Below are positions 1,449 through 64,000 of a stretch of DNA of 64,000 nt, piece after piece. The notes beneath the pieces are model-generated. The model was not told the DNA's origin, ran no database searches, and saw nothing but the letters and a program-made list of their open reading frames with translations. Location: NCBI RefSeq assembly GCF_949987515.2, contig NW_027192651.1, positions 62,001-126,000 on the forward strand, in the 5' to 3' direction. The stretch's first letter is position 1; each line of letters begins with the position of its first letter. A program made the position numbers and the translations under genes. Origin of the DNA: Delphinus delphis. Lineage: Eukaryota > Chordata > Mammalia > Artiodactyla > Delphinidae.

Positions 1449-1520
1449 TTGGCCAAAAAGGGCGTATGCGTTTTTTCCTGAATATATTCAGGAAAAAACG
1501 CATACGCCCTTTTTGGCCAA
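1449..1520. mobile_element. 72-bp perfect palindrome, mariner-like MITE (reference copy)
   Basis: Two 36-bp arms are exact reverse complements with no spacer; the centre is GAATA|TATTC. Arms begin TTGGCCAAAAAGGGCGTATG and end at TTTTTGGCCAA. The outer TTGGCCAAAAAG and the inner run of T followed by CC resemble, from memory, the terminal repeats of cetartiodactyl mariner elements, whose MITE forms are near-perfect palindromes of about 80 bp. On the right the sequence continues CCAAG, or CCCAG in some copies, similar to the mariner end. The left flank has diverged (GCAC before TTGG). No transposase sequence is present. As DNA it could extrude a cruciform; as RNA it would fold into a 36-bp hairpin. 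The same element is the first 72 (or 73) bases of every unit listed here; 28 of 40 copies are perfect. Confidence 0.85.
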
Positions 1521-1524
1521 CCAA

Positions 1525-2330
1525 GCAAGCTTGCAAAGGAAATCTGCACTACAATGAAGTCTCACTTCCCCCCGGTCAAAAGGGCCATCTGAAAAAAGTG
1601 TAAAATCCAGAAAGGCAGGAGAGGCCATGGAGAACTGGGAGCCTTGTTATGCTGATGGGCGGGATGTAAATTGCCAACAGACACTCGGGAGAAGTGTATG
1701 GTGTTTCCTGAAACATCGAAAAAACAAAGCAACTGAGCCTAGGGCACTTCCACTTATGGTCCTATAGCTTAGGGAAATTAAAATCAAAAAGACACAGCCA
1801 CCCCAAAGTTTGGGACGCCTCTGTTTACAAGAACCTCGTTTACAGTACAAGTTCAACATCGCAGAAAGTGAAAAATGGATAAAGAAGTTGTGGTATTTAC
1901 TTACAAAGCAATATCACTCAGCAATGAAATCTATGTCATCAGGCCCTTAGCAGCACAATGAGTGGATTCAGGTATGATGATTCTAACTGAAATAAGTCAC
2001 ACAGAAAAAGAAACATCATAAGATATCAGTAATACACGGAATGTAAACTTGGCTACACAGGAACTGAATTACAGAACAGAACAGGGTCTCAAATTTAGAA
2101 AACCAACTTATGCTTGCTTAAGGGGAAAGGTGAGTTGGGGTGCTGCATAAAACCAGAGATTGAAATGAGCACAGATAAAGTTCCTTAGGCCAAATATGGA
2201 ATAGACAAGAGCTACTCCTTGCTCAACGAAATGGACTCAACACCGCATATTAAACGCCTAAGAATGTACCTGACTAGTAAGTATCTTAAAACCTATGGAT
2301 TGCTATGTCTCCGAAAGAGAATCAAGCATG
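1525..2330 (+). mobile_element. Decayed LINE-1 3' region downstream of the palindrome (reference copy)
   Basis: Reading the + strand, successive stretches match mammalian L1 3' sequence in the right order. ACTACAATGAAGTCTCAC (L1 ACTACAATGAGGTATCAC) comes first, then GGGCCATCTGAAAAAAGT, GATGTAAATTGCCAACAG, ATCAAAAAGACACAGCCACC followed by CCAAAGTTTG, TGGATAAAGAAGTTGTGG, TATCACTCAGCAATGAAA, CTGAAATAAGTCACACAGAA, GATATCAGTAATACACGGAA and an A/G-rich AAGGGGAAAGGTGAG. Similarity seems to fade into the L1 3' UTR after about 2170 and I lose it by about 2330. The element is 5'-truncated and full of substitutions, so it encodes nothing. It recurs at the same place in all units. The comparison is from memory; RepeatMasker would settle the subfamily and edges. 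Confidence 0.8.
1876..1929 (+). pseudogene. Relic of LINE-1 ORF2-like reading frame (reference copy)
   Basis: Frame 1 from TGG at 1876 reads WIKKLWYLLTKQYHSAMK, recognisably the tryptophan-rich motif near the end of L1 ORF2 (WIKK-W...T.(E/Q)Y..A.K). Flanking codons in this frame do not form a long open frame, so this is a fossil, not a gene. In other units the motif varies at single residues. It helps to fix the strand of the LINE-1 insertion as +. Confidence 0.7.
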
Positions 2331-2930
2331 TGTACAGGGGCATAAACGCAGCAGTGATAGGATTGGAGAGGTTCGGTGAGCAAATGAAGACCCTTTGAAG
2401 TCATATTGCATGGTACCCATTCCACGGGTTTCAACTACCCAGGTTTAAGGTATTCTTCCTTCAGCTAAAACATGCATGTGGAACCTAGAGTATGATCAAC
2501 CATGTGATCGGGAGACGTGTTTAAATATGTCTCAGTTTTCCTCCCCTGGTACTCGGGTGCAACATTCCAGACGCTTTACTAACACTCTCCCCACTTGGAG
2601 AGTCAGTCCCTTTAACCTCCTGTTTGGCCCAGTTTGCAATTTCTGCGGAAGATGAACAGGAATAGCGAGAACCAATGAGAGGCTAGCTGGAGGTGTCTGG
2701 ACGGGCAAATTTAACTCTCATTTCCCACCAGGAAGAGGAATTAACCAAAGGCTCACCATGCCGGGCCGGAACCAGATTAGGGCCTGAAGCCATCCTGCGG
2801 TGTTGCGGCCAGGTCACAAGAAAGCGAGTTGAAGAAAGGAGCTCAGGGGCACTGTAATTCACAAACCTGCAGAGTTATAAATGACAGCTATCGTCCAAAA
2901 ATAGACTGAAGTAAGGCTGCCAAGAGGACT
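2331..2930. other. Unassigned ~600-bp segment of the unit (reference copy)
   Basis: I recognise no gene or transposon here. Visible elements are a 10-bp palindrome ACATGCATGT, a small stem CTCTCC/GGAGAG with a 6-base loop, an isolated CCAAT about 200 bases before a TATAAAT, and a GAGCTC site. CCAAT and TATAAAT are too far apart for a standard core promoter. The segment differs between unit types at clustered sites, for example TTTTCCTCCCCTGG against TTTTCGTACCCTGG, and GTCAGCGCC against GTCAGTCCC, which serve as haplotype markers. It could be older L1 or LTR sequence diverged beyond recognition by eye. Confidence 0.6.
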
Positions 2931-3028
2931 TGAAAGCGGGGCAGAATTGCAGGAAACCGATTTCAGGAGGTAGACTGGAATTGCATTGAAAGCATAGGAA
3001 AAGAGGCAGAACGTCCACAATGATGCAC
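2931..3028 (+). mobile_element. LINE-1-like sequence immediately upstream of the palindrome (reference copy)
   Basis: GGGGCAGAATTGCAGGAAAC followed by CGATTTC resembles the L1 stretch GGGCAGAAGACC...ACATTTC. GGAAAAGAGGCAGAACGTCC followed by ACAATGATG resembles L1 GAAAAGATGCTCAACATCAC followed by TAATCAT. In L1 this piece lies directly before the one found to the right of the palindrome, which implies the palindrome split one L1 fragment. Similarity is weaker than on the right side, so this call is less certain. Confidence 0.55.
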
Positions 3029-4608
3029 TTGGCCAAAAAGGGCGTATGCGTTTTTTCCTGAATATATTCAGGAAAAAACGCATACGCCCTTTTTGGCCAA
3101 CCAAGCAAGCTTGCAAAGGAAATCTGCACTACAATGAAGTCTCACTTCCCCCCGGTCAAAAGGGCCATCTGAAAAAAGTGTAAAATCCAGAAAGGCAGGA
3201 CAGGCCATGGAGAACTGGGAGCCTTGTTATGCTGATGGGCGGGATGTAAATTGCCAACAACCACTCGGGAGAAGTGTATGGTGTTTCCTGAAACATCTAA
3301 AAAACAAAGCAACAGAACCTAGGGCACTTCCACTTATGGTCCTATAGCTTAGGGAAATTAAAATCAAAAAGACACAGCCACCCCAAAGTTTGGAACGGCT
3401 CTGTTTACAAGAACCTCGTTTACAGTACAAGTTCAACATCGCAGAAAGTGAAAAATGGAGAAAGAAGTTGTGGTATTTACTTACAAAGCAATATCACTCA
3501 GCAATGAAATCTGTGTCATCACGCCCTTAGCAGCACAATGAGTGGATTCAGGTATGATGATTCTAACTGAAATAAGTCACACAGAAAAAGAAACATCATA
3601 AGATATCAGTAATACACGGAATGTAAACTTGGCTACACAGGAACTGAATTACAGAACAGAACAGGGTCTCAAATTTAGAAAACCAACTTATGCTTGCTTA
3701 AGGGGAAAGGTGAGTTGGGGTGCTGCATAAAACCAGAGATTGAAATAGGCACAGATAAAGTTCCTTAAGCCAAATATGGAATAGACAAGAGCTACTCCTT
3801 GCTCAACGAAATGGACTCAACACCGCATATTAAACGCCTAAGAATGTACCTGACTAGTAAGTATCTTAAAACCTATGGATTGCTATGTCTCCGAAAGAGA
3901 ATCAAGCATGTGTACAGGGGCATAAACGCAGCAGTGATAGGATTGGAGAGGTTCGGCGAGCAAATGAAGACCCTTTGAAGTCATATTGCATGGTACCCAT
4001 TCCACGGGTTTCAACTACCCAGGTTTTAGGTATTCTTCCTTCAGCTAAAACATGCATGTGGAACCCAGAGTATGATCAACCATGTGATCGGGAGACGTGT
4101 TCAAATATGTCTCAGTTTTCCTCCCCTGGTACTCGGGTGCAACATTCCAGACGCTTTACTAACACTCTCCCCACTTGGAGAGTCAGCACCTTTAACCTCC
4201 TGTTTGGCCCAGTTTGCAATTTCTGCGGAAGATGAACAGGAATAGCGAGAACCAATGAGAGACTAGCTGGAGGTGTCTGGACGGGCAAATTTAACTCTCA
4301 TTTCCCACCAGGAAGAGGAAATAACCAAAGGCTCAGCGTGCCGTGCCGGAACCAGATTAGGGCCTGAAGCCATCCTGCGGTGTTGCGGCCAGCTCACAAG
4401 AAAGCGAGTTGAAGAAAGGACCTCAGGGGCACTGTAATTCACAAACCTGCAGAGTTATAAATGACAGCTATCGTCCAAAAATATACTGAAGTAAGCCTGC
4501 CAAGAGGACTTGAAAGCGGGGCAGAATTGCAGGAAACCGATTTCAGGAGGTAGACTGGAATTGCATTGAAAGCATAGGAAAAGAGGCAGAACGTCCACAA
4601 TGATGCAC
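3029..4608 (+). repeat. Satellite unit 2 (1580 bp)
   Basis: Perfect palindrome. Markers shared with unit 4: ATGGAGAAAGAAG, GTCATCACGCCC, TTGAAATAGGCAC, GGTTCGGCGAG, CCAGGTTTTAGG. An incidental + frame at 3885-4235 stays open because TTTTAGG replaces TTTAAGG; I do not regard it as a gene. Confidence 0.9.
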
Positions 4609-6187
4609 TTGGCCAAAAAGGGCGTATGCGTTTTTTCCTGAATATATTCAGGAAAAAACGCATACGCCCTTTTTGGCCAACCAAGCAAGCTTGCAAAGGA
4701 AATCTGCACTACAATGAAGTTTCACTTCCCCCCGGTCAAAAGGGCCATCTGAAAAAAGTGTAAAATCCAGAAAGGCAGGACAGGCCATGGAGAACTGGGA
4801 GCCTTGTTATGCTGATGGGCGGGATGTAAATTGCCAACAGACACTCGGGAGAAGTGTATGGTGTTTCCTGAAACATCTAAAAAACAAAGCAACAGAACCT
4901 AGGGCACTTCCACTTATGGTCCTATAGCTTAGGGAAATTAAAATCAAAAAGACACAGCCACCCCAAATTTGGGACTCCTCTGTTTACAAGAACCTCGTTT
5001 ACCGTACAAGTTCAATATCACAGAAAGTGAAAAATGGATAAAGAACTTGTGGTACTTACGTACAATGCAGTATCACTCAGCAATGAAATCTATGTCATCA
5101 GGCCCGTAGCAGCATAATGAGTGGATTCAGGTACGATGATTCTAACTGAAATAAGTCACACAGAAAAAGAAACATCATAAGATATCACTAATACACGGAA
5201 TGTAAACTTGGCTACACAGGAACTGCATTCCAAAACAGAACAGGGTCTCAAATTTAGAAAACCAACTTATGCTTGCTTAAGGGGAAAGGTGAGTTGGGGT
5301 GCTGCATAAAACCAGAGATTGAAATGAGCACAGATAAAGTTCCTTAGGCCAAATATGGAATAGACAAGAGCTACTCCTTGCTCAACGAAATGGACTCAAC
5401 ACCGCATATTAAACGCCTAAGAATGTACCTGACTAGTAAGTATCTTAAAACCTATGGATTGCTATGTCTCCGAAAGAGAATCAAGCATGTGTACAGGGGC
5501 ATAAACGCAGCAGTGATAGGATTGGAGAGGTTCGGTGAGCAAATGAAGACCCTTTGAAGTCATATTGCATGGCACCCATTCCACGGGTTTCAACTACCCA
5601 GGTTTAAGGTATTCTTCCTTCAGCTAAAACATGCATGTGGAACCTAGAGTATGATCAACCATGTGATCGGGAGACGTGTTTAAATATGTCTCAGTTTTCC
5701 TCCCCTGGTACTCGGGTGCAACATTCCAGACGCTTTACTAACACTCTCCCCACTTGGAGAGTCAGTCCCTTTAACCTCCTGTTTGGCCCAGTTTGCAATT
5801 TCTGCGGAAGATGAACAGGAATAGCGAGAACCAATGAGAGGCTAGCTGGAGGTGTCTGGACGGGCAAATTTAACTCTCATTTCCCACCAGGAAGAGGAAT
5901 TAACCAAAGGCTCACCATGCCGGGCCGGAACCAGATTAGGGCCTGAAGCCATCCTGCGGTGTTGCGGCCAGGTCACAAGAAAGCGAGTTGAAGAAAGGAG
6001 CTCAGGGGCACTGTAATTCACAAACCTGCAGAGTTATAAATGACAGCTATCGTCCAAAAATAGACTGAAGTAAGGCTGCCAAGAGGACTTGAAAGCGGGG
6101 CAGAATTGCAGGAAACCGATTTCAGGAGGTAGACTGGAATTGCATTGAAAGCATAGGAAAAGAGGCAGAACGTCCACAATGATGCAC
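4609..6187 (+). repeat. Satellite unit 3 (1579 bp, mosaic)
   Basis: Perfect palindrome. Up to about 5240 it carries the Y haplotype (CAGTATCACTC, CCCGTAGCAGCATAATG, GGTACGATG, CTGCATTCC); beyond about 5260 it matches unit 1 (TTAGGCC, GTTTAAATATG). The switch lies inside the LINE-1 part. One base is lost in CACCCCAAATTTGGG. Confidence 0.9.
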
Positions 6188-7767
6188 TTGGCCAAAAAGG
6201 GCGTATGCGTTTTTTCCTGAATATATTCAGGAAAAAACGCATACGCCCTTTTTGGCCAACCAAGCAAGCTTGCAAAGGAAATCTGCACTACAATGAAGTC
6301 TCACTTCCCCCCGGTCAAAAGGGCCATCTGAAAAAAGTGTAAAATCCAGAAAGGCAGGACAGGCCATGGAGAACTGGGAGCCTTGTTATGCTGATGGGCG
6401 GGATGTAAATTGCCAATAGACACTCCGGAGAAGTGTATGGTGTTTCCTGAAACATCTAAAAAACAAAGCAACAGAGCCTAGGGCACTGCCACTTATGGTC
6501 CTATAGCTTAGGGAAATTAAAATCAAAAAGACACAGCCACCCCAAAGTTTGGAACGGCTCTGTTAACAAGAACCTCGTTTACAGTACAAGTTCAACATCG
6601 CAGAAAGTGAAAAATGGAGAAAGAAGTTGTGGTATTTACTTACAAAGCAATATCACTCAGCAATGAAATCTGTGTCATCACGCCCTTAGCAGCACAATGA
6701 GTGGATTCAGGTATGATGATTCTAACTGAAATAAGTCACACAGAAAAAGAAACATCATAAGATATCAGTAATACACGGAATGTAAACTTGGCTACACAGG
6801 AACTGAATTACAGAACAGAACAGGGTCTCAAATTTAGAAAACCAACTTATGCTTGCTTAAGGGGAAAGGTGAGTTGGGGTGCTGCATAAAACCAGAGATT
6901 GAAATAGGCACAGATAAAGTTCCTTAAGCCAAATATGGAATAGACAAGAGCTACTCCTTGCTCAACGAAATGGACTCAACACCGCATATTAAACGCCTAA
7001 GAATGTACCTGACTAGTAAGTATCTTAAAACCTATGGATTGCTATGTCTCCGAAAGAGAATCAAGCATGTGTACAGGGGCATAAACGCAGCAGTGATAGG
7101 ATTGGAGAGGTTCGGCGAGCAAATGAAGACCCTTTGAAGTCATATTGCATGGTACCCATTCCACGGGTTTCAACTACCCAGGTTTTAGGTATTCTTCCTT
7201 CAGCTAAAACATGCATGTGGAACCCAGAGTATGATCAACCATGTGATCGGGAGACGTGTTCAAATATGTCTCAGTTTTCCTCCCCTGGTACTCGGGTGCA
7301 ACATTCCAGACGCTTTACTAACACTCTCCCCACTTGGAGAGTCAGCACCTTTAACCTCCTGTTTGGCCCAGTTTGCAATTTCTGCGGAAGATGAACAGGA
7401 ATAGCGAGAACCAATGAGAGACTAGCTGGAGGTGTCTGGACGGGCAAATTTAACTCTCATTTCCCACCAGGAAGAGGAATTAACCAAAGGCTCAGCGTGC
7501 CATGCCGGAACCAGATTAGGGCCTGAAGCCATCCTGCGGTGTTGCGGCCAGCTTACAAGAAAGCGAGTTGAAGAAAGGAGCTCAGGGGCACTGTAATTCA
7601 CAAACCTGCAGAGTTATAAATGACAGCTATCGTCCAAAAATAGACTGAAGTAAGGCTGCCAAGAGGACTTGAAAGCGGGGCAGAATTGCAGGAAACCGAT
7701 TTCAGGAGGTAGACTGGAATTGCATTGAAAGCATAGGAAAAGAGGCAGAACGTCAACAATGATGCAC
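6188..7767 (+). repeat. Satellite unit 4 (1580 bp)
   Basis: Perfect palindrome. Repeats the marker set of unit 2 at an offset of 3159. Private variants: CCAATAGACACTCC, TCTGTTAACAAG. Its last bases carry GTCAACAATG in place of GTCCACAATG, which recurs at the end of unit 10. Confidence 0.9.
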
Positions 7768-9346
7768 TTGGCCAAAAAGGGCGTATGCGTTTTTTCCTGA
7801 ATATATTCAGGAAAAAACGCATACGCCCTTTTTGGCCAACCAAGCAAGCTTGCAAAGGAAATCTGCACTACAATGAAGTCTCACTTCCCCCCGGTCAAAA
7901 GGGCCATCTGAAAAAAGTGTAAAATCCAGAAAGGCAGGACAGGCCATGGAGAACTGGGAGCCTTGTTATGCTGATGGGCGGGATGTAAATTGCCAACAGA
8001 CACTCGGGAGAAGTGTATGGTGTTTCCTGAAACATCTAAAAAACAAAGCAACAGAGCCTAGGGCACTTCCACTTATGGTCCTATAGCTTAGGAAAATTAA
8101 AATCAAAAAGACACAGCCACCCCAAAGTTTGGGACGCCTCCGTTTACACAAACCCCGTTTACCGTACAAATTCAATATCACAGAAAGTGAAAAATGGATA
8201 AAGAACTTGTGGTACTTACGTACAATGCAGTATCACTCAGCAATGAAATCTATGTCATCAGGCCCGTAGCAGCATAATGAGTGGATTCAGGTACGATGAT
8301 TCTAACTGAAATAAGTCACACAGAAAAAGAAACATCATAAGATATCAGTAATACACGGAATGTAAACTTGGCTACACAGGAACTGCATTCCAAAACAGAA
8401 CAGGGTCTCAAATTAAAAAACCAACTTATGCTTGCTTAAGGGGAAAGGTGAGTTGGGGTGCTGCATAAAACCAGAGATTGAAATGAGCACAGATAAAGTT
8501 CCTTAAGCCAAATATGGAATAGACAAGAGCTACTCCTTGCTCAACGAAATGGACTCAACACCGCATATTAAACGCCTAAGAATGTACCTGACTAGTAAGT
8601 ATCTTAAAACCTATGGATTGCTATGTCTCCGAAAGAGAATCAAGCATGTGTACAGGGGCATAAACGCAGCAGTGATAGGATTGGAGAGGTTCGGTGAGCA
8701 AATGAAGACCCTTTGAAGTCATATTGCATGGTACCCATTACACGGGTCTTAACTCTCCAGGTTTAAGGTATTCTTCCTTCAGCTAAAACCTGCATGTGGA
8801 ACCCAGAGTATGATCAACCATGTGAACGGTAGACGTGTTCAAATATGTCTCAGTTTTCCTCCCCTGGTACTCGGGTGCAACATTCCAGACGCTTTACTAA
8901 CACTCTCCCGACTTGGAGAGTCAGCGCCTTTAACCTCCTGTTTGGCCAAGTTTGCAATTTCTGCGGAAGATGAACAGGAATAGCGAGAACCAATGAGAGA
9001 CTAGCTGGAGGTGTCTGGACGGGCAAATTTAACTCTCATTTCCCACCAGGAAGAGGAAATAAGCAAAGGCTCAGCATGCCGTGCCGGAACCAGATTAGGG
9101 CCTGAAGCCATCCTGCGGTGTTGCGGCCAGCTCACAAGAAAGCGAGTTGAAGAAAGGAGCTCAGGGGCACTGTAATTCACAAACCTGCAGAGTTATAAAT
9201 GACAGCTATCTTCCAAAAATATACTGAAGTAAGCCTGCCAAGAGGACTTGAAAGCGGGGCAGAATTGCAGGAAACCGATTTCAGGAGGTAGACTGGAATT
9301 GCATTGAAAGCATAGGAAAAGAGGCAGAACGTCCACAATGATGCAC
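7768..9346 (+). repeat. Satellite unit 5, type A (1579 bp)
   Basis: Perfect palindrome. Type A markers: TTAGGAAAATTAAAATC, CCTCCGTTTACACAAACCCC, AAATTAAAAAACCAAC. Y haplotype in the LINE-1 part. Matched by unit 11 at an offset of 9479. Confidence 0.9.
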
Positions 9347-10926
9347 TTGGCCAAAAAGGGCGTATGCGTTTTTTCCTGAATATATTCAGGAAAAAACGCA
9401 TACGTCCTTTTTGGCCAACCAAGCAAGCTTGCAAAGGAAATCTGCACTACAATGAAGTCTCACTTCCCCCCGGTCAAAAGGGTCATCTGAAAAAAGTGTA
9501 AAATCCAGAAAGGCAGGACAGGCCATGGAGAACTGGGAGCCTTGTTAATCTGATGGGCGGGATGTAAATTGCCAACAGACACTCGGGAGAAGTGTATGGT
9601 GTTTCCTGAAACATCTAAAAAACAAAGCAACAGAACCTAGGGCACTTCCACTTATGGTCCTATAGCTTAGGGAAATTAAAATCAAAAAGACACAGCCACC
9701 CCAATGTTTGGAACGGCTCTGTTTACAAGAACCTCGTTTACAGTACAAGTTCAATATCGCAGAAAGTGAAAAATGGATAAAGAAGTTGTGGTATTTACTT
9801 ACAAAGCAATATCACTCAGCAATGAAATCTGTGTCATCAGGCCCTTAGCAGCACAATGAGTGGATTCAGGTATGATGATTCTAACTGAAATAAGTCACAC
9901 AGAAAAAGAAACATCATAAGATATCAGTAATACACGGAATGTAAACTTGGCTACACAGGAACTGAATTACAGAACAGAACAGGGTCTCAAATTTAGAAAA
10001 CCAACTTATGCTTGCTTAAGGGGAAAGGTGAGTTGGAGTGCTGCATAAAACCAGAGATTGAAATGAGCACAGATAAAGTTCCTTAAGCCAAATATGGAAT
10101 AGACAAGAGCTACTCCTTGCTCAACGAAATGGACTCAACACCGCATATTAAACGCCTAAGAATGTACCTGACTAGTAAGTATCTTAAAACCTATGGATTG
10201 CTATGTCTCCGAAAGAGAATCAAGCATGTGTACAGGGCCATAAACGCAGCAGTGATAGGATTGGAGAGGTTCGGTGAGCAAATGAAGACCCTTTGAAGTC
10301 ATATTGCATGGTACCCATTACACGGGTCTTAACTCTCCAGGTTTAAGGTATTCTTCCTTCAGCTAAAACCTGCATGTGGAACCCAGAGTATGATCAACCA
10401 TGTGAACGGTAGACGTGTTCAAATATGTCTCAGTTTTCCTCCCCTGGTACTCGGGTGCAACATTCCAGACGCTTTACTAACACTCTCCCGACTTGGAGAG
10501 TCAGCGCCTTTAACCTCCTGTTTGGCCCAGTTTGCAATTTCTGCGGAAGATGAACAGGAATAGCGAGAACCAATGAGAGACTAGCTGGAGGTGTCTGGAC
10601 GGGCAAATTTAACTCTCATTTCCCACCAGGAAGAGGAAATAACCAAAGGCTCAGCGTGCCGTGCCGGAACCAGATTAGGGCCTGAAGCCATCCTGCGGTG
10701 TTGCGGCCAGCTCACAAGAAAGCGAGTTGAAGAAAGGAGCTCAGGGGCACTGTAATTCACAAACCTGCAGAGTTATAAATGACAGCTATCGTCCAAAAAT
10801 ATACTGAAGTAAGCCTGCCAAGAGGACTTGAAAGCGGGGCAGAATTGCAGGAAACCGATTTCAGGAGGTAGACTGGATTTGCATTGAAAGCATAGGAAAA
10901 GAGGCAGGAAGTCCACAATGATGCAC
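9347..10926 (+). repeat. Satellite unit 6, type B (1580 bp)
   Basis: Right palindrome arm has C to T at 9405. Type B markers: AAGGGTCATCTG, CTTGTTAATCTGATGGG, CACCCCAATGTTTGG, GAGTTGGAGTGCTG. Matched by units 8 and 12. Confidence 0.9.
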
Positions 10927-53565: not shown

Positions 53566-55145
53566 TTGGCCAAAAAGGGCGTATGCATTTTTTCCTGAAT
53601 ATATTCAGGAAAAAACGCATACGCCCTTTTTGGCCAACCAAGCAAATTTGCAAAGGAAATCTGCACTACAATGAAGTCTCACTTCCCCCCGGTCAAAAGG
53701 GCCATCTGAAAAAAGTGTAAAATCCAGAAAGGCAAGACAGGCCATGGAGAACTGGGAGCCTTGTTATGCTGATGGGCGGGATGTAAATTGCCAACAGACA
53801 CTCGGGAGAAGTGTATGGTGTTTCCTGAAACATCTAAAAAACAAAGCAACAGAGCCTAGGGCACTTCCACTTATGGTCCTATAGCTTAGTGAAATTAAAA
53901 TCAAAAAGACACAGCCACCCCAAAGTTTGGAACGGCTCTGTTTACAAGAACCTCGTTTACAGTACAAGTTCAACATCGCAGAAAGTGAAAAATGGATAAA
54001 GAACTTGTGGTATTTACTTACAAAGCAATATCACTCAGCAATGAAATCTGTGTCATCAGGCCCTTAGCAGCACAATGAGTGGATTCAGGTATGATGATTC
54101 TAACTGAAATAAGTCACACAGAAAAAGAAACATCATAAGATATCAGTAATACACGGAATGGAAACTTGGCTACACAAGAACTGAATTACAGAACAGAACA
54201 GGGTCTCAAATTTAGAAAACCAACTTATGCTTGCTTAAGGGTAAAGGTGAGTTGGGGTGCTGCATAAAACCAGAGATTGAAATGAGCACAGATAAAGTTC
54301 CTTAAGCCAAATATGGAATAGACAAGAGCTACTCCTTGCTCAACGAAATGGACTCAACACCGCATATTAAACGCCTAAGAATGTACCTGACTAGTAAGTA
54401 TCTTAAAACCTATGGATTGCTATGTCTCCGAAAGAGAATCAAGCATGTGTACAGGGGCATAAACGCAGCAGTGATAGGATTGGAGAGGTTCGGTGAGCAA
54501 ATGAAGACCCTTTGAAGTCATATTGCATGGTACCCATTACACGGGTTTTAACTCTCCAGGTTTAAGGTATTCTTCCTTCATCTAAAACATGCATGTGGAA
54601 CCTAGAGTATGATCAACCATGTGATCGGGAGACGTGTTCAAATATGTCTCAGTTTTCCTCCCCTGGTACTCGGGTGCAACATTCCAGACGCTTTACTAAC
54701 ACTCTCCCGACTTGGAGAGTCAGCGCCTTTAACCTCCTGTTTGGCCCAGTTTGCAATTTCTGCGGAAGATGTACAGGAATAGGGAGAACCAATGAGAGAC
54801 TAGCTGGAGGTGTCTGGACGGGCAAATTTAACTCTCATTTCCCACCAGGAAGAGGAAATAACCAAAGGCTCAGCGTGCCGTGCCGGACCCAGATTAGGGC
54901 CTGAAGCCATCCTGCGGTGTTGCGGCCAGTTCACAAGAAAGCGAGTTGAAGAAAGGAGCTCAGGGGCACTGTAATTCACAAACCTGCAGAGTTATAAATG
55001 ACAGCTATCGTCCAAAAATAGACTGAAGTAAGGCTGCCAAGAGGACTTGAAAGCGGGGCAGAATTGCAGGAAACCGATTTCAGGAGGTAGACTGGAATTG
55101 CATTGAAAGCATAGGAAAAGAGGCAGAACGTCCACAATGATGCAC
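53566..55145 (+). repeat. Satellite unit 34 (1580 bp)
   Basis: Left palindrome arm has G to A at 53587; right flank CAAATTTGC (also unit 36). Second half carries H markers (GGGTTTTAACTC, CTTCATCTAAAAC, GATGTACAGG) but keeps TTTTCCTCCCCTGG and lacks the H deletion. Confidence 0.9.
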
Positions 55146-56723
55146 TTGGCCAAAAAGGGCGTATGCGTTTTTTCCTGAATATATTCAGGAAAAAACGCAT
55201 ACGCCCTTTTTGGCCAACCAAGCAAGCTTGCAAAGGAAATCTGCACTACAATGAAGTCTCACTTCCCCCCGGTCAAAAGGGCCATCTGAAGAAAGTGTAA
55301 AATGCAGAAAGGCAACAGGCCATTGAGAACTGGGAGCCTTGTTATGCTGATGGGCGGGATGTAAATTGCCAACAGACACTTGGGAGACGTGTATGGTGTT
55401 TCCTGAAACATCTAAAAAACAAAGCAACAGAGCCTAGGGCACTTCCACTTATGGTCCTATAGTTTAGGGAAATTAAAATCAAAAAGACACAGTCACCCCA
55501 AAGTTTGGAACGGCTCTGTTTACAAGAACCTCGTTTACAGTACAAGTTCAACATTGCAGAAAGTGAAAAATGGATAAAGAAGTTGTGGTATTCACTTACA
55601 AAGCAATATCATTCAGCAATGAAATCTCTGTCATCAGGCCCTTAGCAGCACAATGAGTGGATTCAGGTATGATGATTCTAACTGAAATAAGTCACACAGA
55701 AAAAGAAACATCATAAGATATCAGTAATACACGGAATGGAAACTTGGCTACACAGGAACTGAATTACAGAACAGAACAGTGTCTCAAATTTAGAAAACCA
55801 ACTTATGCTTGCTTAAGGGTAAAGGTGAGTTGGGGTGCTGCATAAAACCAGAGATTGAAATGAGCACAGATAAAGTTCCTTAAGCCAAATATGGAATAGA
55901 CAAGAGGTACTCCTTGCTCAACGAAATGGACTCAACACCGCATATTAAACGCCTAAGAATGTACCTGACTAGTAATTATCTTAAAACCTATGGATTGCTA
56001 TGTCTCTGAAAGAGAATCAAGCATGTGTACAGGGGCATAAACGCAGCAGTGATAGGATTGGAGAGGTTCGGTGAGCAAATGAAGACCCTTTAAATTCATA
56101 TTGCATGGTACCCATTCCACGGGTTTCAACTACCCAGGTTTAAGGTATTCTTCCTTCAGCTAAAACATGCATGTGGAACCTAGAGTATGATCAACCATGT
56201 GATCGGGAGACGTGTTCAAATATGTCTCAGTTTTCGTACCCTGGTACTCGGGTGCAACAATCCAGACGCTTTACTAACACTCTCCCCACTTGGAGAGTCA
56301 GTCCCTTTAACCTCCTGTTTGGCCCAGTTTTCAATTTCTGCGGAAGATGAACAGGAATAGCGAGAACCAATGAGAGGCTAGCTGGAGGTGTCTGGACGGG
56401 CAAATTTAACTCTCATTTCCCACCTGGAAGAGGAATTAACCAAAGGCTCAGCGTGCCGTGCCAGAACCAGATTAGGGCCTGAAGCCATCCTGCGGTGTTG
56501 CGGCCAGGTCACAAGAAATCGAGTTGAAGAAAGGAGCTCAGGGGCACTGTAATTCACAAACCTGCAGAGTTATAAATGACAGCTATCGTCCAAAAATAGA
56601 CTGAAGTAAGGCTGCCAAGAGGACTTGAAAGCGGGGCAGAATTGCAGGAAACCGATTTCAGGAGGTAGACTGGAATTGCATTGAAAGCATAGGAAAAGAG
56701 GCAGAACGTCCACAATGATGCAC
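55146..56723 (+). repeat. Satellite unit 35, type K (1578 bp)
   Basis: Perfect palindrome. Second K copy, 3158 bases after unit 33. Private: TGGGAGACGTGTATGG, AAATCTCTGTCATC, CAAGAGGTACTCC, CCCTTTAAATTC. Confidence 0.9.
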
Positions 56724-58302
56724 TTGGCCAAAAAGGGCGTATGCGTTTTTTCCTGAATATATTCAGGAAAAAACGCATACGCCCTTTTTGGCCAACCAAG
56801 CAAATTTGCAAAGGAAATCTGCACTACAATGAAGTCTCACTTCCCCCCGGTCAAAAGGGCCATCTGAAAAAAGTGTAAAATCCAGAAAGGCAAGACAGGC
56901 CATGGAGAACTGGGAGCCTTGTTATGCTGATGGGCGGGATGTAAATTGCCAACAGACACTCGGGAGAAGTGTATGGTGTTTCCTGAAACATCTAAAAAAC
57001 AAAGCAACAGAGCCTAGGGCACTTCCACTTATGGTCCTATAGCTTAGGGAAATTAAAATCAAAAAGACACAGCCACCCCAAAGTTTGGGACGCCTCTGTT
57101 TACAAGAACCTCGTTTACCGTACAAGTTCAATATAACAGAAAGTGAAAAATGGATAAAGAACTTGTGGTACTTACGTACAATGCAGTATCACTCAGCAAT
57201 GAAATATATGTCATCAGGCCCGTAGCAGCATAATGAGTAGTTTCAGGTACGATGATTCTAACTGAAATAAGTCACACAGAAAAAGAAACATCATAAGATA
57301 TCACTAATACACGGAATATAAACTTGGCTACACAGGAACTGAATTCCAAAACAGAACAGGTTCTCAAATTTAGAAAACCAACTTATGCTTGCTAAAGGGG
57401 AAAGGTGAGTTGGGTTGCTGCATAAAACCAGAGATTGAAATGAGCACAGATAAAGATCCTTAAGCCAAATATGGAATAGACAAGAGCTACTCCTTGCTCA
57501 ACGAAATGGACTCAACACCGCACATTAAACACCTAAGAATGTACCTGACTAGTAAGTATCTTAAAACCTATGGATTGCTATGTCTCCGAAAGAGAATCAA
57601 ACATGTGTACAGGGGCATAAACGCAGCATGATAGGATTGGAGAGGTTCGGTGAGCAAATGAAGACCCTTTGAAGTCATATTGCATGGTACCCATTCCACG
57701 GCTTTCAACTACCCAGGTTTTAGGTATTCTTCCTTCAGCTAAAACATGCATGTGGAACCCAGAGTATGATCAACCATGTGATCGGGAGACGTGTTCAAAT
57801 ATGTCTCAGTTTTCCTCCCCTGGTACTCGGGTGCAACATTCCAGACGCTTTACTAACACTCTCCCCACTTGGAGAGTCAGCGCCTTTAACCTCCTGTTTG
57901 GCACAGTTTGCAATTTCTGCGGAAGATGAACAGGAATAGCGAGAACCAATGGGAGGCTAGCTGGAGGTGTCTGGACGGGCAAATTTAACTCTCATTTCCC
58001 ACCAGGAAGAGGAAATAACCAAAGGCTCAGCGTGCCGTGCCGGACCCAGATTAGGGCCTGAAGCCATCCTGCGGTGTTGCGGCCAGCTGAAAAGAAAGCG
58101 AGTTGAAGAAAGGAGCTCAGGGGCACTGTAATTCACAAACCTGCAGAGTTATAAATGACAGCTATCGTCCAAAAATAGACTGAAGTAAGGCTGCCAAGAG
58201 GACTTGAAAGCGGGGCAGAATTGCAGGAAACCGATTTCAGGAGGTAGACTGGAATTGCATTGAAAGCATAGGAAAAGAGGCAGAACGTCCACAATGATGC
58301 AC
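56724..58302 (+). repeat. Satellite unit 36, type L (1579 bp)
   Basis: Perfect palindrome. L markers: GAAATATATGTCATC, GAGTAGTTTCAGG, GGAATATAAACTTGG, GCTTGCTAAAGGGG, GGGTTGCTGC, CGCACATTAAACACC, GCAGCATGATAGG (1-base deletion), CCACGGCTTTC, TTTGGCACAG. Matched by units 37 and 39. Confidence 0.9.
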
Positions 58303-59881
58303 TTGGCCAAAAAGGGCGTATGCGTTTTTTCCTGAATATATTCAGGAAAAAACGCATACGCCCTTTTTGGCCAACCAAGCAAGCTTGCAAAGGAAATCTG
58401 CACTACAATGAAGTCTCACTTCCCCCCGGTCAAAAGGGCCATCTGAAAAAAGTGTAAAATCCAGAAAGGCAAGACAGGCCATGGAGAACTGGGAGCCTTG
58501 TTATGCTGATGGGCGGGATGTAAATTGCCAACAGACACTCGGGAGAAGTGTATGGTGTTTCCTGAAACATCTAAAAAACAAAGCAACAGAACCTAGGGCA
58601 CTTCCACTTATGGTCCTATAGCTTAGGGAAATTAAAATCAAAAAGACACAGCCACCCCAAAGTTTGGGACGCCTCTGTTTACAAGAACCTCGTTTACCGT
58701 ACAAGTTCAATATAACAGAAAGTGAAAAATGGATAAAGAACTTGTGGTACTTACGTACAATGCAGTATCACTCAGCAATGAAATATATGTCATCAGGCCC
58801 GTAGCAGCATAATGAGTAGTTTCAGGTACGATGATTCTAACTGAAATAAGTCACACAGAAAAAGAAACATCATAAGATATCACTAATACACGGAATATAA
58901 ACTTGGCTACACAGGAACTGAATTCCAAAACAGAACAGGTTCTCAAATTTAGAAAACCAACTTATGCTTGCTAAAGGGGAAAGGTGAGTTGGGTTGCTGC
59001 ATAAAACCAGAGATTGAAATGAGCACAGATAAATATCCTTAAGTCAAATATGGAATAGACAAGAGCTACTCCTTGCTCAACGAAATGGACTCAACACCGC
59101 ACATTAAACACCTAAGAATGTACCTGACTAGTAAGTATCTTAAAACCTATGGATTGCTATGTCTCCGAAAGAGAATCAAACATGTGTACAGGGGCATAAA
59201 CGCAGCATGATAGGATTGGAGAGGTTCGGTGAGCAAATGAAGACCCTTTGAAGTCATATTGCATGGTACCCATTCCACGGCTTTCAACTACCCAGGTTTT
59301 AGGTATTCTTCCTTCAGCTAAAACATGCATGTGGAACCCAGAGTATGATCAACCATGTGATCGGGAGACGTGTTCAAATATGTCTCAGTTTTCCTCCCCT
59401 GGTACTCGGGTGCAACATTCCAGACGCTTTACTAACACTCTCCCCACTTGGAGAGTCAGCGCCTTTAACCTCCTGTTTGGCACAGTTTGCAATTTCTGCG
59501 GAAGATGAACAGGAATAGCGAGAACCAATGAGAGGCTAGCTGGAGGTGTCTGGACGGGCAAATTTAACTCTCATTTCCCACCAGGAAGAGGAAATAACCA
59601 AAGGCTCAGCGTGCCGTGCCGGACCCAGATTAGGGCCTGAAGCCATCCTGCGGTGTTGCGGCCAGCTGAAAAGAAAGCGAGTTGAAGAAAGGAGCTCAGG
59701 GGCACTGTAATTCACAAACCTGCAGAGTTATAAATGACAGCTATCGTCCAAAAATAGACTGAAGTAAGGCTGCCAAGAGGACTTGAAAGCGGGGCAGAAT
59801 TGCAGGAAACCGATTTCAGGAGGTAGACTGGAATTGCATTGAAAGCATAGGAAAAGAGGCAGAACGTCCACAATGATGCAC
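58303..59881 (+). repeat. Satellite unit 37, type L (1579 bp)
   Basis: Second L copy, directly adjacent to the first; perfect palindrome. Small differences from unit 36: GATAAATATCC, AAGTCAAATATGG. Confidence 0.9.
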
Positions 59882-61461
59882 TTGGCCAAAAAGGGCGTAT
59901 GCGTTTTTTCCTGAATATATTCAGGAAAAAACGCATACGCCCTTTTTGGCCAACCAAGCAAGCTTGCAAAGGAAATCTGCACTACAATGAAGTCTCACTT
60001 CCCCCCGGTCAAAAGGGCCATCTGAAAAAAGTGTAAAATCCAGAAAGGCAGGACAGGCCATGGAGAACTGGGAGCCTTGTTATGCTGATGGGCGGGATGT
60101 AAATTGCCAACAACCACTCGGGAGAAGTGTATGGTGTTTCCTGAAACATCTAAAAAACAAAGCAACAGAACCTAGGGCACTTCCACTTATGGTCCTATAG
60201 CTTAGTGAAATTAAAATCAAAAAGACACAGCCACCCCAAAGTTTGGAACGTCTCTGTTTACAAGAACCTCGTTTACAGTACAAGTTCAACATCGCAGAAA
60301 GTGAAAAATGGATAAAGAACTTGTGGTATTTACTTACAAAGCAATATCACTCAGCAATGAAATCTGTGTCATCAGGCCCTTAGCAGCACAATGAGTGGAT
60401 TCAGGTATGATGATTCTAACTGAAATAAGTCACACAGAAAAAGAAACATCATAAGATATCAGTAATACACGGAATGGAAACTTGGCTACACAAGAACTGA
60501 ATTACAGAACAGAACAGGGTCTCAAATTTAGAAAACCAACTTATGCTTGCTTAAGGGTAAAGGTGAGTTGGGGTGCTGCATAAAACCAGAGATTGAAATG
60601 AGCACAGATAAAGTTCCTTAAGCCAAATATGGAATAGACAAGAGCTACTCCTTGCTCAACGAAATGGACTCAACACCGCATATTAAACGCCTAAGAATGT
60701 ACCTGACTAGTAAGTATCTTAAAACCTATGGATTGCTATGTCTCCGAAAGAGAATCAAGCATGTGTACAGGGGCATAAACGCAGCAGTGATAGGATTGGA
60801 GAGGTTCGGTGAGCAAATGAAGACCCTTTGAATTCATATTGCATGGTACCCATTCCACGGGTTTCAACTACCCAGGTTTAAGGTATTCTTCCTTCAGCTA
60901 AAACATGCATGTGGAACCTAGAGTATGATCAACCATGTGATCGGGAGACGTGTTCAAATATGTCTCAGTTTTCGTACCCTGGTACTCGGGTGCAACAATC
61001 CAGACGCTTTACTAACACTCTCCCCACTTGGAGAGTCAGTCCCTTTATCCTCCTGTTTGGCCCAGTTTTCAATTTCTGCGGAAGATGAACAGGAATAGCG
61101 AGAACCAATGAGAGGCTAGCTGGAGGTGTCTGGACGGGCAAATTTAACTCTCATTTCCCACCTGGAAGAGGAATTAACCAAAGGCTCAGCGTGCCGTGCC
61201 AGAACCAGATTAGGGCCTGAAGCCATCCTGCGGTGTTGCGGCCAGGTCACAAGAAAGCGAGTTGAAGAAAGGAGCTCAGGGGCACTGTAATTCACAAACA
61301 TGCAGAGTTATAAATGACAGCTATCGTCCAAAAATAGACTGAAGTAAGGCTGCCAAGAGGACTTGAAATCGGTGCAGAATTGCAGGAAACCGATTTCAGG
61401 AGGTAGACTGGAATTGCATTGAAAGCATAGGAAAAGAGGCAGAACGTCCACAATGATGCAC
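59882..61461 (+). repeat. Satellite unit 38 (1580 bp)
   Basis: Perfect palindrome. First part matches unit 40 (GCTTAGTGAAATT, GGAACGTCTCTG); later part is K-like (TTTGAATTCAT, CAACAATCC, TTTTCAATTTC, CACCTGGAAG). Private: CCCTTTATCCTCC. Ends with GAAATCGGTGCAG. Confidence 0.9.
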
Positions 61462-63040
61462 TTGGCCAAAAAGGGCGTATGCGTTTTTTCCTGAATATAT
61501 TCAGGAAAAAACGCATACGCCCTTTTTGGCCAACCAAGCAAGCTTGCAAAGGAAATCTGCACTACAATGAAGTCTCACTTCCCCCCGGTCAAAAGGGCCA
61601 TCTGAAAAAAGTGTAAAATCCAGAAAGGCAAGACAGGCCATGGAGAACTGGGAGCCTTGTTATGCTGATGGGCGGGATGTAAATTGCCAACAGACACTCG
61701 GGAGAAGTGTATGGTGTTTCCTGAAACATCTAAAAAACAAAGCAACAGAGCCTAGGGCACTTCCACTTATGGTCCTATAGCTTAGGGAAATTAAAATCAA
61801 AAAGACACAGCCACCCCAAAGTTTGGGACGCCTCTGTTTACAAGAACCTCGTTTACCGTACAAGTTCAATATCACAGAAAGTGAAAAATGGATAAAGAAC
61901 TTGTGGTACTTACGTACAATGCAGTATCACTCAGCAATGAAATATATGTCATCAGGCCCGTAGCAGCATAATGAGTAGTTTCAGGTACGATGATTCTAAC
62001 TGAAATAAGTCACACAGAAAAAGAAACATCATAAGATATCACTAATACACGGAATATAAACTTGGCTACACAGGAACTGAATTCCAAAACAGAACAGGTT
62101 CTCAAATTTAGAAAACCAACTTATGCTTGCTAAAGGGGAAAGGTGAGTTGGGTTGCTGCATAAAACCAGAGATTGAAATGAGCACAGATAAAGATCCTTA
62201 AGCCAAATATGGAATAGACAAGAGCTACTCCTTGCTCAACGAAATGGACTCAACACCGCACATTAAACACCTAAGAATGTACCTGACTAGTAAGTATCTT
62301 AAAACCTATGGATTGCTATGTCTCCGAAAGAGAATCAAGCATGTGTACAGGGGCATAAACGCAGCATGATAGGATTGGAGAGGTTCGGTGAGCAAATGAA
62401 GACCCTTTGAAGTCATATTGCATGGTACCCATTCCACGGCTTTCAACTACCCAGGTTTTAGGTATTCTTCCTTCAGCTAAAACATGCATGTGGAACCCAG
62501 AGTATGATCAACCATGTGATCGGGAGACGTGTTCAAATATGTCTCAGTTTTCCTCCCCTGGTACTCGGGTGCAACATTCCAGACGCTTTACTAACACTCT
62601 CCCCACTTGGAGAGTCAGCGCCTTTAACCTCCTGTTTGGCACAGTTTGCAATTTCTGCGGAAGATGAACAGGAATAGCGAGAACCAATGAGAGGCTAGCT
62701 GGAGGTGTCTGGACGGGCAAATTTAACTCTCATTTCCCACCAGGAAGAGGAAATAACCAAAGGCTCAGCGTGCCGTGCCGGAACCAGATTAGGGCCTGAA
62801 GCCATCCTGCGGTGTTGCGGCCAGCTCAAAAGAAAGCGAGTTGAAGAAAGGAGCTCAGGGGCACTGTAATGCACAAAGCTGCAGAGTTATAAATGACAGC
62901 TATCGTCCAAAAATAGACTGAAGTAAGGCTGCCAAGAGGACTTGAAAGCGGGGCAGAATTGCAGGAAACCGATTTCAGGAGGTAGACTGGAATTGCATTG
63001 AAAGCATAGGAAAAGAGGCAGAACGTCCACAATGATGCAC
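61462..63040 (+). repeat. Satellite unit 39, type L (1579 bp)
   Basis: Third L copy; perfect palindrome. Keeps AATCAAGCATG where units 36 and 37 have AATCAAACATG, and ends differently (CTGTAATGCACAAAGCTGC), which extends an incidental minus-strand frame. Confidence 0.9.
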
Positions 63041-64000
63041 TTGGCCAAAAAGGGCGTATGCGTTTTTTCCTGAATATATTCAGGAAAAAACGCATACGCC
63101 CTTTTTGGCCAACCAAGCAAGCTTGCAAAGGAAATCTGCACTACAATGAAGTCTCACTTCCCCCCGGTCAAAAGGGCCATCTGAAAAAAGTGTAAAATCC
63201 AGAAAGGCAGGACAGGCCATGGAGAACTGGGAGCCTTGTTATGCTGATGGGCGGGATGTAAATTGCCAACAACCACTCGGGAGAAGTGTATGGTGTTTCC
63301 TGAAACATCTAAAAAACAAAGCAACAGAACCTAGGGCACTTCCACTTATGGTCCTATAGCTTAGTGAAATTAAAATCAAAAAGACACAGCCACCCCAAAG
63401 TTTGGAACGTCTCTGTTTACAAGAACCTCGTTTACAGTACAAGTTCAACATCGCAGAAAGTGAAAAATGGATAAAGAACTTGTGGTACTTACGTACAATG
63501 CAGTATCACTCAGCAATGAAATCTATGTCATCAGGCCCGTAGAAGCATAATGAGTGGATTCAGGTACGATGATTCTAACTGAAATAAGTCACACAGAAAA
63601 AGAAACATCATAAGATATCAGAAATACACGGAATGTAAACTTGGCTACACAGGAACTGCATTCCAAAACAGAACAGGGTCTCAAATTTAGAAAACCAACT
63701 TATGCTTGCTTAAGGGTAAAGGTGAGTTGGGGTGCTGCATAAAACCAGAGATTGAAATGAGCACAGATAAAGTTCCTTAAGCCAAATATGGAATAGACAA
63801 GAGCTACTCCTTGCTCAACGAAATGGACTCAAAACCCCATATTAAACGCCTAAGAATGTACCTGACTAGTAAGTATCTTAAAACCTATGGATTGCTATGT
63901 CTCCAAAAGAGAATCAAGCGTGTGTACAGGGGCATAAACGCAGCAGTGATAGGATTGGAGAGGTTCGGTGAGCAAATGAAGACCCTTTGAAGTCATATTG
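63041..64000 (+). repeat. Satellite unit 40 (partial, 3' cut by window edge)
   Basis: First 960 bases of a unit; perfect palindrome at 63041-63112. Matches unit 38 to about 63480, then switches to the Y haplotype of type F (CAGTATCACTC, CGTAGAAGCATAATG, CAGAAATACAC, CTCAAAACCCC). Confidence 0.9.

What the first reader, a model, noticed from the sequence alone, without database searches (positions are those of the whole stretch)
1449..63112. A perfect 72-bp palindrome sits in every satellite unit, 40 times in one orientation
Direct reading shows two 36-bp arms with no spacer, exact in 28 of 40 copies. Long spacerless palindromes are usually unstable in eukaryotic genomes because they extrude cruciforms and are cut or deleted, yet here one persists every ~1.58 kb over 64 kb. 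It may be tolerated in heterochromatin, help drive unequal exchange and spread of the array, or be a protein-binding or nucleosome-phasing site. The function is inference.
Basis: partly seen in the sequence, partly recalled or inferred. Interest (0 to 1): 0.75.

Follow-up and report, generated by a model that had tools for sequence, protein, structure and literature searches.

The report
Transposon-end palindrome preserved in whale-type satellite
Every 1.58-kb repeat of this whale-type satellite DNA carries a 72-letter mirror sequence, usually perfect, that looks like the captured ends of a small mariner jumping gene, and this stretch has stayed almost unchanged while the rest of the repeat drifted apart, which suggests that its hairpin-like shape may matter.

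Summary
Confirmed: 40 spacerless 72-bp palindromes in one orientation, 28 exact, every 1,577-1,580 bp. The window lies in a 2.66-Gb genome with 95,762 exact copies of the 72-mer. By unit length and L1-like content it resembles the 'common cetacean satellite' (literature; no tool named the species).

New here: the palindrome looks like a captured mariner MITE. A transposon-end pattern built from bovine miR-2284-type RNAs plus recall hits the genome 246 times (reversed control 0); 27 of the 30 loci read are short palindromic MITEs whose majority core aligns end to end with it.

Within the window it does not clearly outlast its flanks (8/72 against 62/400 variable sites, p=0.47). Between old dispersed units and young arrays it does: 0/70 fixed differences against 220/1,361 elsewhere; three units chosen blind to it differ at 14/211 sites against 113/419 flank sites. 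Eight of the twelve old units were found by its letters. Some changes match on both arms. Rare units lost it, four leaving one terminal TTGGCCAA.

Most likely a captured transposon-end dyad kept by constraint or palindrome-centred copying; which is open.

The parts
1..64000 (+). head-to-tail satellite array, ~1,580-bp units, mean pairwise difference 2.9%
1449..1520 (+). palindrome copy 1, exact
3029..3100 (+). palindrome copy 2, exact
4609..4680 (+). palindrome copy 3, exact
6188..6259 (+). palindrome copy 4, exact
7768..7839 (+). palindrome copy 5, exact
9347..9418 (+). palindrome copy 6, one substitution (C59T)
10927..10998 (+). palindrome copy 7, exact
12507..12578 (+). palindrome copy 8, C59T
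14087..14158 (+). palindrome copy 9, exact
15667..15738 (+). palindrome copy 10, two unpaired substitutions (G22T, A54G)
17247..17318 (+). palindrome copy 11, exact
18826..18897 (+). palindrome copy 12, C59T
20406..20477 (+). palindrome copy 13, exact
21986..22057 (+). palindrome copy 14, G22T and A54G
23566..23637 (+). palindrome copy 15, exact
25145..25216 (+). palindrome copy 16, exact
26725..26796 (+). palindrome copy 17, exact
28305..28376 (+). palindrome copy 18, exact
29885..29956 (+). palindrome copy 19, exact
31465..31536 (+). palindrome copy 20, exact
33045..33116 (+). palindrome copy 21, exact
34625..34696 (+). palindrome copy 22, exact
36203..36275 (+). palindrome copy 23, 73 bp: one T inserted beside the centre plus one substitution
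37782..37853 (+). palindrome copy 24, exact
39360..39432 (+). palindrome copy 25, 73 bp: one T inserted beside the centre plus two substitutions
40939..41010 (+). palindrome copy 26, G58A
42517..42588 (+). palindrome copy 27, exact
44095..44167 (+). palindrome copy 28, 73 bp: one T inserted beside the centre plus one substitution
45674..45745 (+). palindrome copy 29, C15T
47252..47323 (+). palindrome copy 30, exact
48832..48903 (+). palindrome copy 31, G44A
50411..50482 (+). palindrome copy 32, exact
51988..52059 (+). palindrome copy 33, exact
53566..53637 (+). palindrome copy 34, G22A
55146..55217 (+). palindrome copy 35, exact
56724..56795 (+). palindrome copy 36, exact
58303..58374 (+). palindrome copy 37, exact
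59882..59953 (+). palindrome copy 38, exact
61462..61533 (+). palindrome copy 39, exact
63041..63112 (+). palindrome copy 40, exact
1521..1526 (+). CCAAGC, probable shortened remnant of the mariner terminal end CCCAA; three satellite units read on contig C51 keep the full CCCAA
1666..1933 (+). LINE-1 ORF2 C-terminus-like stretch (decayed), one per unit, about +217 to +484 from each palindrome start; similarity weak

Best explanation
The palindrome is a mariner-type MITE (two terminal inverted repeats head to head) that was captured by an ancestral unit of an L1-derived, whale-type satellite and multiplied with it. Shown: 246 exact mariner-end matches in the same genome, MITE copies of similar length and end letters, and end-to-end alignment with their majority. 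Inferred: that an insertion, rather than another route, put it there. The arrays keep copies alike by unequal exchange or conversion (near-identical units 2, 4 and 6 apart; shown). In addition the palindrome is kept almost unchanged between old dispersed units and young arrays while the rest of the unit drifts (shown, on twelve old units), and some changes appear on both arms together (shown, small numbers). The most likely reason is that the dyad itself is constrained, as a protein-binding site or cruciform/hairpin-forming element, with arm-to-arm copying restoring symmetry (inferred; no function tested). Its hairpin occasionally causes loss by slippage between the terminal TTGGCCAA repeats (junctions shown, mechanism inferred).
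For: Mariner end pattern: 129+117 exact matches, 0 in the reversed control. Of the first 30 of those loci, 27 show both ends about 59-71 bp apart, mostly flanked as TATTGGG...CCCAATA; L010 has a longer loop, L016 a cut right arm, L038 no right arm, and L021-L023 are near-duplicates of one another. The majority MITE core is 70 bp and aligns end to end with the 72-bp palindrome. The arm resembles 15 bovine miR-2284/2285-type RNAs copied from papers (10 of 15 at p<0.05, 0 of 20 control miRNAs; summed score reached by 2 of 2,000 shuffles; best 17/21 in register, no shuffle of 20,000). Three satellite units on C51 keep the full mariner end TTGGGTTGGCC. Array consensus against the majority of diverged units: 0/70 fixed differences in the palindrome, 220/1,361 elsewhere; none of 1,373 overlapping windows outside it reaches zero. 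Diverged units against array consensus: all twelve 49/845 against 439/1,675 flank sites, three chosen fully blind 14/211 against 113/419; the four not picked by palindrome letters (L065b, L082-L084) 22/280 against 152/558; unselected left arms of eight units 12/282. Dispersed MITEs do decay: unselected arm 86/868 = 9.9% in 25 copies. Both-arm changes: one T/A indel pair (70-bp against 72-bp form), two adjacent pairs in L067, one pair shared by L065b and c, one in L063; cells paired 92.4% (0 of 500 shuffles as high), covariation score 1 of 500.
Against: Inside the window's array the palindrome is not clearly more conserved than its +-200-bp flanks (8/72 against 62/400, p=0.47), 4 of its 8 variable sites are CpG, and no substitution there is two-sided; of 37 palindromes at 13 other array loci 30 are exact and none has a two-sided change. 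Eight of the twelve diverged units were found with letters of one arm (seven the right, L065c the left), which favours intact palindromes; L082 lies about 5 kb from L065, so it is not a distant sample. Without the columns of the selected right arm the fixed-difference result is 0/52, P=1e-4; if both arms count as one, P=0.002. The number of pairs changed on both sides alone is not striking (2; 47 of 500 shuffles as high). The arms differ from the MITE majority by four substitutions and one indel, alike on both sides (letters); no dispersed MITE with GGGCG on both arms was seen, but only 100 of about 1,200 places were listed. Timing is awkward: satellite flanks differ by about 26% between old and young units, dispersed MITEs by only about 10%, so the captured element may be an older relative. 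The left outer end and a TA duplication are not recognisable. The link from miR-2284 to Mariner1_BT is recalled.
Confidence: 0.58

Rival explanations
1. Passive passenger: a captured MITE carried by tandem amplification, with uniformity due only to array homogenisation and no constraint.
For: Within the window's array the palindrome varies like its flanks; recent segmental copying of units is plain; 4 of its 8 variable sites are CpG. Eight of twelve old units were found by palindrome letters.
Against: 0/70 fixed differences against 220/1,361 between array and diverged units; three blind units 14/211 against 113/419; four not picked by its letters 22/280 against 152/558.
Confidence: 0.22
2. Palindrome-centred homogenisation: hairpin or cruciform breaks start gene conversion at the palindrome, so copies are patched there and stay alike without any selected function.
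For: Diversity is lowest around the palindrome, and not only in it: pi 0.010 at the palindrome rising to 0.042 at 236-336 bp in the window, and the ring 36-136 bp ranks 0.003 of all positions in 32 units from 13 other loci. Breakpoints inside the palindrome in L045/L046, L073 and L085.
Against: The old units L063, L065a-c, L067, L068, L083 and L084 keep the 70-bp form, the length of the MITE core, rather than the arrays' 72-bp form, so they were not patched from the arrays. Exchange breakpoints are not enriched near it (6 of 24 within 200 bp, 6.1 expected). No flank trough in the old-against-young comparison (12/70 and 4/68 fixed differences in the windows straddling the two edges). The trough test was post hoc (ranks 0.006-0.24 in the window; 0.003-0.24 elsewhere) and the arrays share ancestry.
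Confidence: 0.3
3. Hairpin RNA source: transcripts through the array fold into a perfect stem that Dicer or Drosha cut, giving small RNAs for heterochromatin.
For: The RNA folds as an unbroken stem. Similar mariner MITEs make miR-548 in human (PMC1784062, passages); bovine miR-2284-type RNAs resemble the arm.
Against: All Rfam hits are below the gathering scores and unrelated miRNA families score nearly as high because of the perfect stem. No small-RNA data were available.
Confidence: 0.08
4. Assembly artefact: perfect arms created by consensus errors.
For: Raw reads not seen.
Against: 95,762 exact copies, one-sided variants shared by units that are also alike elsewhere, and near-identical palindromes in diverged units on large contigs.
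Confidence: 0.02

Closest known systems
Common cetacean satellite (1,579-bp killer-whale component; title seen in a reference list, PMC7763226)
   Same: Unit length 1,577-1,580 bp; a weak LINE-1 ORF2-like stretch in each unit, as a review reports for this satellite (PMC9659126, passages); very abundant.
   Different: The original papers were not held, so whether they name the palindrome is unknown to me. Identity rests on length, L1-like content and genome context, not on comparison with a named record.
Mariner1_BT and its short derivatives (ruminants, toothed whales, leaf-nosed bats; PMC3517439, parts 1-2 of 3 read)
   Same: Host range fits; the genome carries 246 exact mariner-type ends of the pattern searched, and short palindromic MITEs.
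   Different: The satellite copy has four substitutions and one indel per arm against the MITE majority, alike on both arms, a fully palindromic centre and worn ends. No Mariner1_BT sequence was available to compare.
MADE1 / mir-548 (human Hsmar1 MITE; PMC1784062, passages)
   Same: 80-bp near-perfect palindrome of two mariner ends; its Rfam model is the top hit when 171 bases are searched and aligns over all 84 positions.
   Different: Dispersed, not in a satellite; 19 of 36 arm letters shared (p=0.014); the Rfam hit is below the gathering score and absent from the list when 5,000 bases are searched.
Satellites with MITE parts in other animals (PMC12628747, passages)
   Same: MITEs as a source or carrier of satellite DNA; palindromes in monomers are said there to be frequent.
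   Different: There the tandem repeats come from inside MITEs; here a whole short MITE sits as a part of an L1-derived unit.
CENP-B box in alpha satellite
   Same: In concept: a short motif repeated in a satellite, said (recalled) to resemble transposon ends and to be bound by a transposase-derived protein.
   Different: No CENP-B box in the window (0 exact, 0 with up to 3 mismatches). No binding protein is known here.
Dyad symmetries at centromeres (PMC8997354, passages)
   Same: Inverted repeats predicted to extrude cruciforms in satellite DNA.
   Different: Those are under 10 bp; here one 36-bp-arm palindrome per 1.58 kb. Centromeric location not tested.

Membership tests
Common cetacean satellite | Tandem unit near 1,579 bp (delphinid type) | tested here: met
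   Spacing 1577-1580; length taken from the title of Widegren 1985 seen
Common cetacean satellite | LINE-1 3' end inside the unit | tested here: inconclusive
   Top 4 of 5 PDB hits are LINE-1 ORF2p, collinear at residues 1147-1237, best E=0.026; one piece alone gave 4 of 4 ORF2p hits at E=0.41 or worse, another gave none, a third hit an unrelated protein; Pfam none
Common cetacean satellite | Sequence identity to a named cetacean satellite record | not testable with these tools
Mariner-type MITE | Two mariner terminal repeats head to head, ~70-80 bp | tested here: met
   End-to-end alignment with the majority of dispersed MITEs of the same genome
Mariner-type MITE | Intact outer ends | tested here: inconclusive
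   Right end CCAACC(C)AA kept, in full in C51 units; left outer end not recognisable
Mariner-type MITE | TA target duplication | tested here: not met
   No TA on either side of the satellite copy; may be worn away
Mariner-type MITE | Moved by a mariner transposase | not testable with these tools
   No activity data
CENP-B box satellite | 17-bp CENP-B box | tested here: not met
   0 matches in the window (motif recalled)
microRNA precursor | Curated family score reached | tested here: not met
   All hits below gathering

The most novel reading that the evidence does not exclude
The satellite dyad is a working analogue of the CENP-B box: a captured mariner end-pair, bound by a protein derived from a mariner transposase or by a cruciform-recognising factor, and held constant by selection in a satellite that fills about 5.7% of the genome in intact-palindrome units alone.
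Probability: 0.08. Interest if true: 0.92.

Novelty: new variant of a known kind. Interest (0 to 1): 0.62.

Why it matters
It gives a likely origin and a testable role to a long palindrome repeated about 96,000 times in a mammal-sized genome. Captured transposon ends in satellites and DNA shape as the selected feature of heterochromatin are both debated; here one genome holds old dispersed units, young arrays and the dispersed transposon relatives side by side, so drift, copying and selection can be separated. If the dyad is bound by a factor, it would be a further case of a transposon end recruited as a satellite motif.

Tried and rejected
Rejected: chance; artefact; CENP-B box; curated microRNA family; exchange breakpoints clustering at the palindrome. 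Weak or empty: Pfam on L1-like pieces; Tandem Repeats Finder, whose period limit of 500 hides the array; viral, prokaryote and phage collections, the one hit, being an unrelated viral contig (L001). Eight pieces fetched to sample old units (L074-L081; hits 2-9 of the 40) do not align across the palindrome, probably because they are copies of an array edge; they are not counted. Of the next group I fetched four (L082-L085), in list order apart from L064 which was already held; L085 keeps only the right arm (2/35 differences) and joins other DNA near the centre; it is told but not counted among the twelve. Original satellite papers not held; two others not held.

Dropped rows: L022 and L023 (near-duplicates of L021) and L038 were left out of the MITE majority; L022, L023, L010, L016 and L038 out of the MITE arm rate. 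In one search blast stretches under 120 bp or over 92% identity were left out. In one search palindromes cut by a locus end and the half palindrome of L045 are not among the 37. In one search I sorted the RNAs into 15 alike and 20 controls by eye, 13 of the 15 being unnamed candidates of one paper, and did not give all that the papers print; the 2-of-2,000 result leans on that choice.

Confidence was lowered by 0.02 for this and the passive rival raised by 0.02.
Full report
OBSERVATION. The window is one tandem array. A script found 40 palindromes of 72 bp, all in one orientation, 28 exact, nine with one or two substitutions, three with a 1-bp insertion beside the centre plus one or two substitutions; spacing is 1,577-1,580 bp. 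The consensus unit is 1,580 bp; mean pairwise difference is 2.9%. In 300 dinucleotide shuffles of the unit the longest arm was 10 bp, and outside the palindrome the unit has none longer than 5.

WHERE IT IS. The window is G000:C27:62001-126000 of a 2.66-Gb assembly in 630 contigs. The exact 72-mer occurs 95,762 times, equal to about 151 Mb of 1,580-bp units or 5.7% of the assembly. [quoted passage not shown] Each unit carries a decayed stretch whose translation has LINE-1 ORF2p as its top four of five PDB hits, collinear at residues 1147-1237, best E=0.026; shorter pieces gave ORF2p once, nothing and an unrelated protein, and Pfam gave nothing. A review says the common cetacean satellite resembles the L1 3' end (PMC9659126, passages). 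I therefore call it a whale-type satellite; no tool named the species.

LIKELY ORIGIN OF THE PALINDROME. The arm resembles bovine miR-2284/2285-type RNAs: of 15 sequences copied from papers 10 align at p<0.05 and their summed score was reached by 2 of 2,000 shuffles; of 20 control miRNAs none reached p<0.05. I sorted them by eye. Candidate AB-156 (PMC7653039, passages) shares 17 of 21 letters in register (0 of 20,000 shuffles); AB-29 is weaker (10/20, p=0.037). From these RNAs and recall I wrote a mariner end pattern; it hits the genome 246 times exactly, the reversed control 0 times. Of the first 30 loci, 27 are short palindromic MITEs, mostly with ends TATTGGG...CCCAATA; three of these are near-duplicates. 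Their 70-bp majority core aligns from end to end with the satellite palindrome. Three satellite units on contig C51 still show the complete mariner end TTGGGTTGGCC. The human miR-548 model, built on the mariner MITE MADE1 (PMC1784062, passages), is the top Rfam hit for 171 bases but below its gathering score, and was not listed when 5,000 bases were searched. Mariner1_BT is reported from ruminants, toothed whales and leaf-nosed bats (PMC3517439, parts 1 and 2 of 3 read). That miR-2284 comes from Mariner1_BT is my recollection; one search for papers joining these terms found none.

YOUNG TIMESCALE. Within the window the palindrome has 8 variable sites of 72, against 62 of 400 in its +-200-bp flanks (p=0.47); without CpG sites 4/64 against 56/386 (p=0.076), and against the whole unit 4/64 against 250/1,444 (p=0.017). 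No substitution is matched on the other arm. Intact copies number 28 of 40 for the palindrome, 29 and 21 for the adjoining 72-mers. At 13 other array loci, chosen as best matches and so biased to likeness, 30 of 37 palindromes are exact and none has a matched change. Diversity is lowest around the palindrome (pi 0.010, rising to 0.042 at 236-336 bp); ranks run from 0.006 to 0.24 in the window and from 0.003 to 0.24 in 32 other units. The test was post hoc and the arrays share history. The 24 breakpoints of recent unit duplications do not favour the palindrome.

OLD TIMESCALE. On large contigs there are diverged units, 67-82% identical to the array consensus; where successive units were seen the period is mostly near 1.72-1.76 kb, about 1.96 kb in L063. 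Twelve gave palindromes. Against the array consensus the palindrome differs at 49/845 sites and the +-70-bp flanks at 439/1,675. Eight of the twelve were found with letters of one arm, seven by the right and L065c by the left. The unselected left arms of eight units differ at 12/282. The four units not picked by palindrome letters give 22/280 against 152/558; the three of them picked by DNA about 200 bp away give 14/211 against 113/419. Fixed differences between array consensus and diverged majority: 0/70 in the palindrome, 220/1,361 elsewhere; the minimum of 1,373 overlapping windows outside it is 3.1%. Without the right-arm columns used for finding it is 0/52, P=1e-4; if both arms count as one, P=0.002. 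Dispersed MITEs of the same genome differ from their own majority at 86/868 sites of the unselected arm, so being a palindrome does not by itself stop decay. Among the diverged units themselves the palindrome differs at 10.8% and the flanks at 19.9%; 65 of 66 pairs show the palindrome lower.

TWO-SIDED CHANGE. Eight of the twelve old palindromes (L063, L065a-c, L067, L068, L083, L084) lack one T on the left and one A on the right together, giving the 70-bp length also of the MITE core; L082 lacks the left one only. L067 has two adjacent matched changes, L065b and c share one, L063 has one. The pair count gives 92.4% paired cells (0 of 500 shuffles as high), covariation score 1 of 500, cells changed on both sides 7 of 500, pairs changed on both sides 47 of 500; the alignment sets the indel gaps unevenly, which lowers these counts. 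About 0.5 matched cells are expected from independent change. Read from the letters, the satellite arms differ from the MITE majority by four substitutions and one indel, alike on both arms, plus one site on the right where the MITE itself is unmatched.

LOSS. Six units with intact close flanks have lost most or all of the palindrome; four keep a single TTGGCCAA, the 8-bp word present at both ends, as expected of hairpin slippage. Breakpoints inside the palindrome occur in a deletion variant of about 340 bp met in L045 and L046, in L073, and at an array edge in L085. A total of units by flanks could not be obtained, so no loss rate is given.

READING. The origin as a captured mariner MITE is well supported, though the captured copy may belong to an older relative, because satellite flanks have diverged more than dispersed MITEs. 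Uniformity within arrays needs no more than homogenisation. Preservation between old and young units needs more: either the dyad is constrained, or the palindrome is preferentially re-copied. Against copying from the arrays stands the retention of the 70-bp form in the older units; for it stands the diversity trough. I give constraint of the dyad the edge, with arm-to-arm copying as helper, at moderate confidence.

LITERATURE LIMITS. I saw no paper on a palindrome or a mariner MITE in this satellite in the rows listed, but the lists were capped and the original papers on it are not held, so this is not proof that it is unpublished.

Noticed in passing
window 1-64000: Unit-to-unit variants are rich in transversions (129 transitions, 188 transversions; alike in singletons and shared variants), unusual for a mammal.
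   Followed up: partly
window 7768-21986 and 29885-33045: Near-identical units at lags 2, 4 and 6 (for example units 5-7 with 11-13, 9-10 with 13-14; units 19 and 21 identical), marking recent duplications inside the array.
   Followed up: partly
window 36203, 39360, 44095: Three related units share a T inserted beside the palindrome centre and form a distinct unit lineage in the second half of the array.
   Followed up: no
L045:5795-6301 and L046:2412-3648: A unit variant with a deletion of about 340 bp ending inside the left arm of the palindrome occurs at least twice in one array.
   Followed up: partly
G000 contigs C3, C5, C10, C13, C14, C15, C19, C20: The closest relatives of one old array edge (90-95% alike) include many places near contig ends, which hints at subtelomeric segment duplication.
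   Followed up: no
G000:C7:35326838-35326902 and C13:15588485-15588552: Two dispersed MITEs carry the same end variant on both arms (GTGCG, GGTCG), so matched arm changes also occur outside the satellite.
   Followed up: no
L053:1501-1530: A lone mariner-like end with satellite-type letters GGGCG breaks off into other DNA inside the arm.
   Followed up: no
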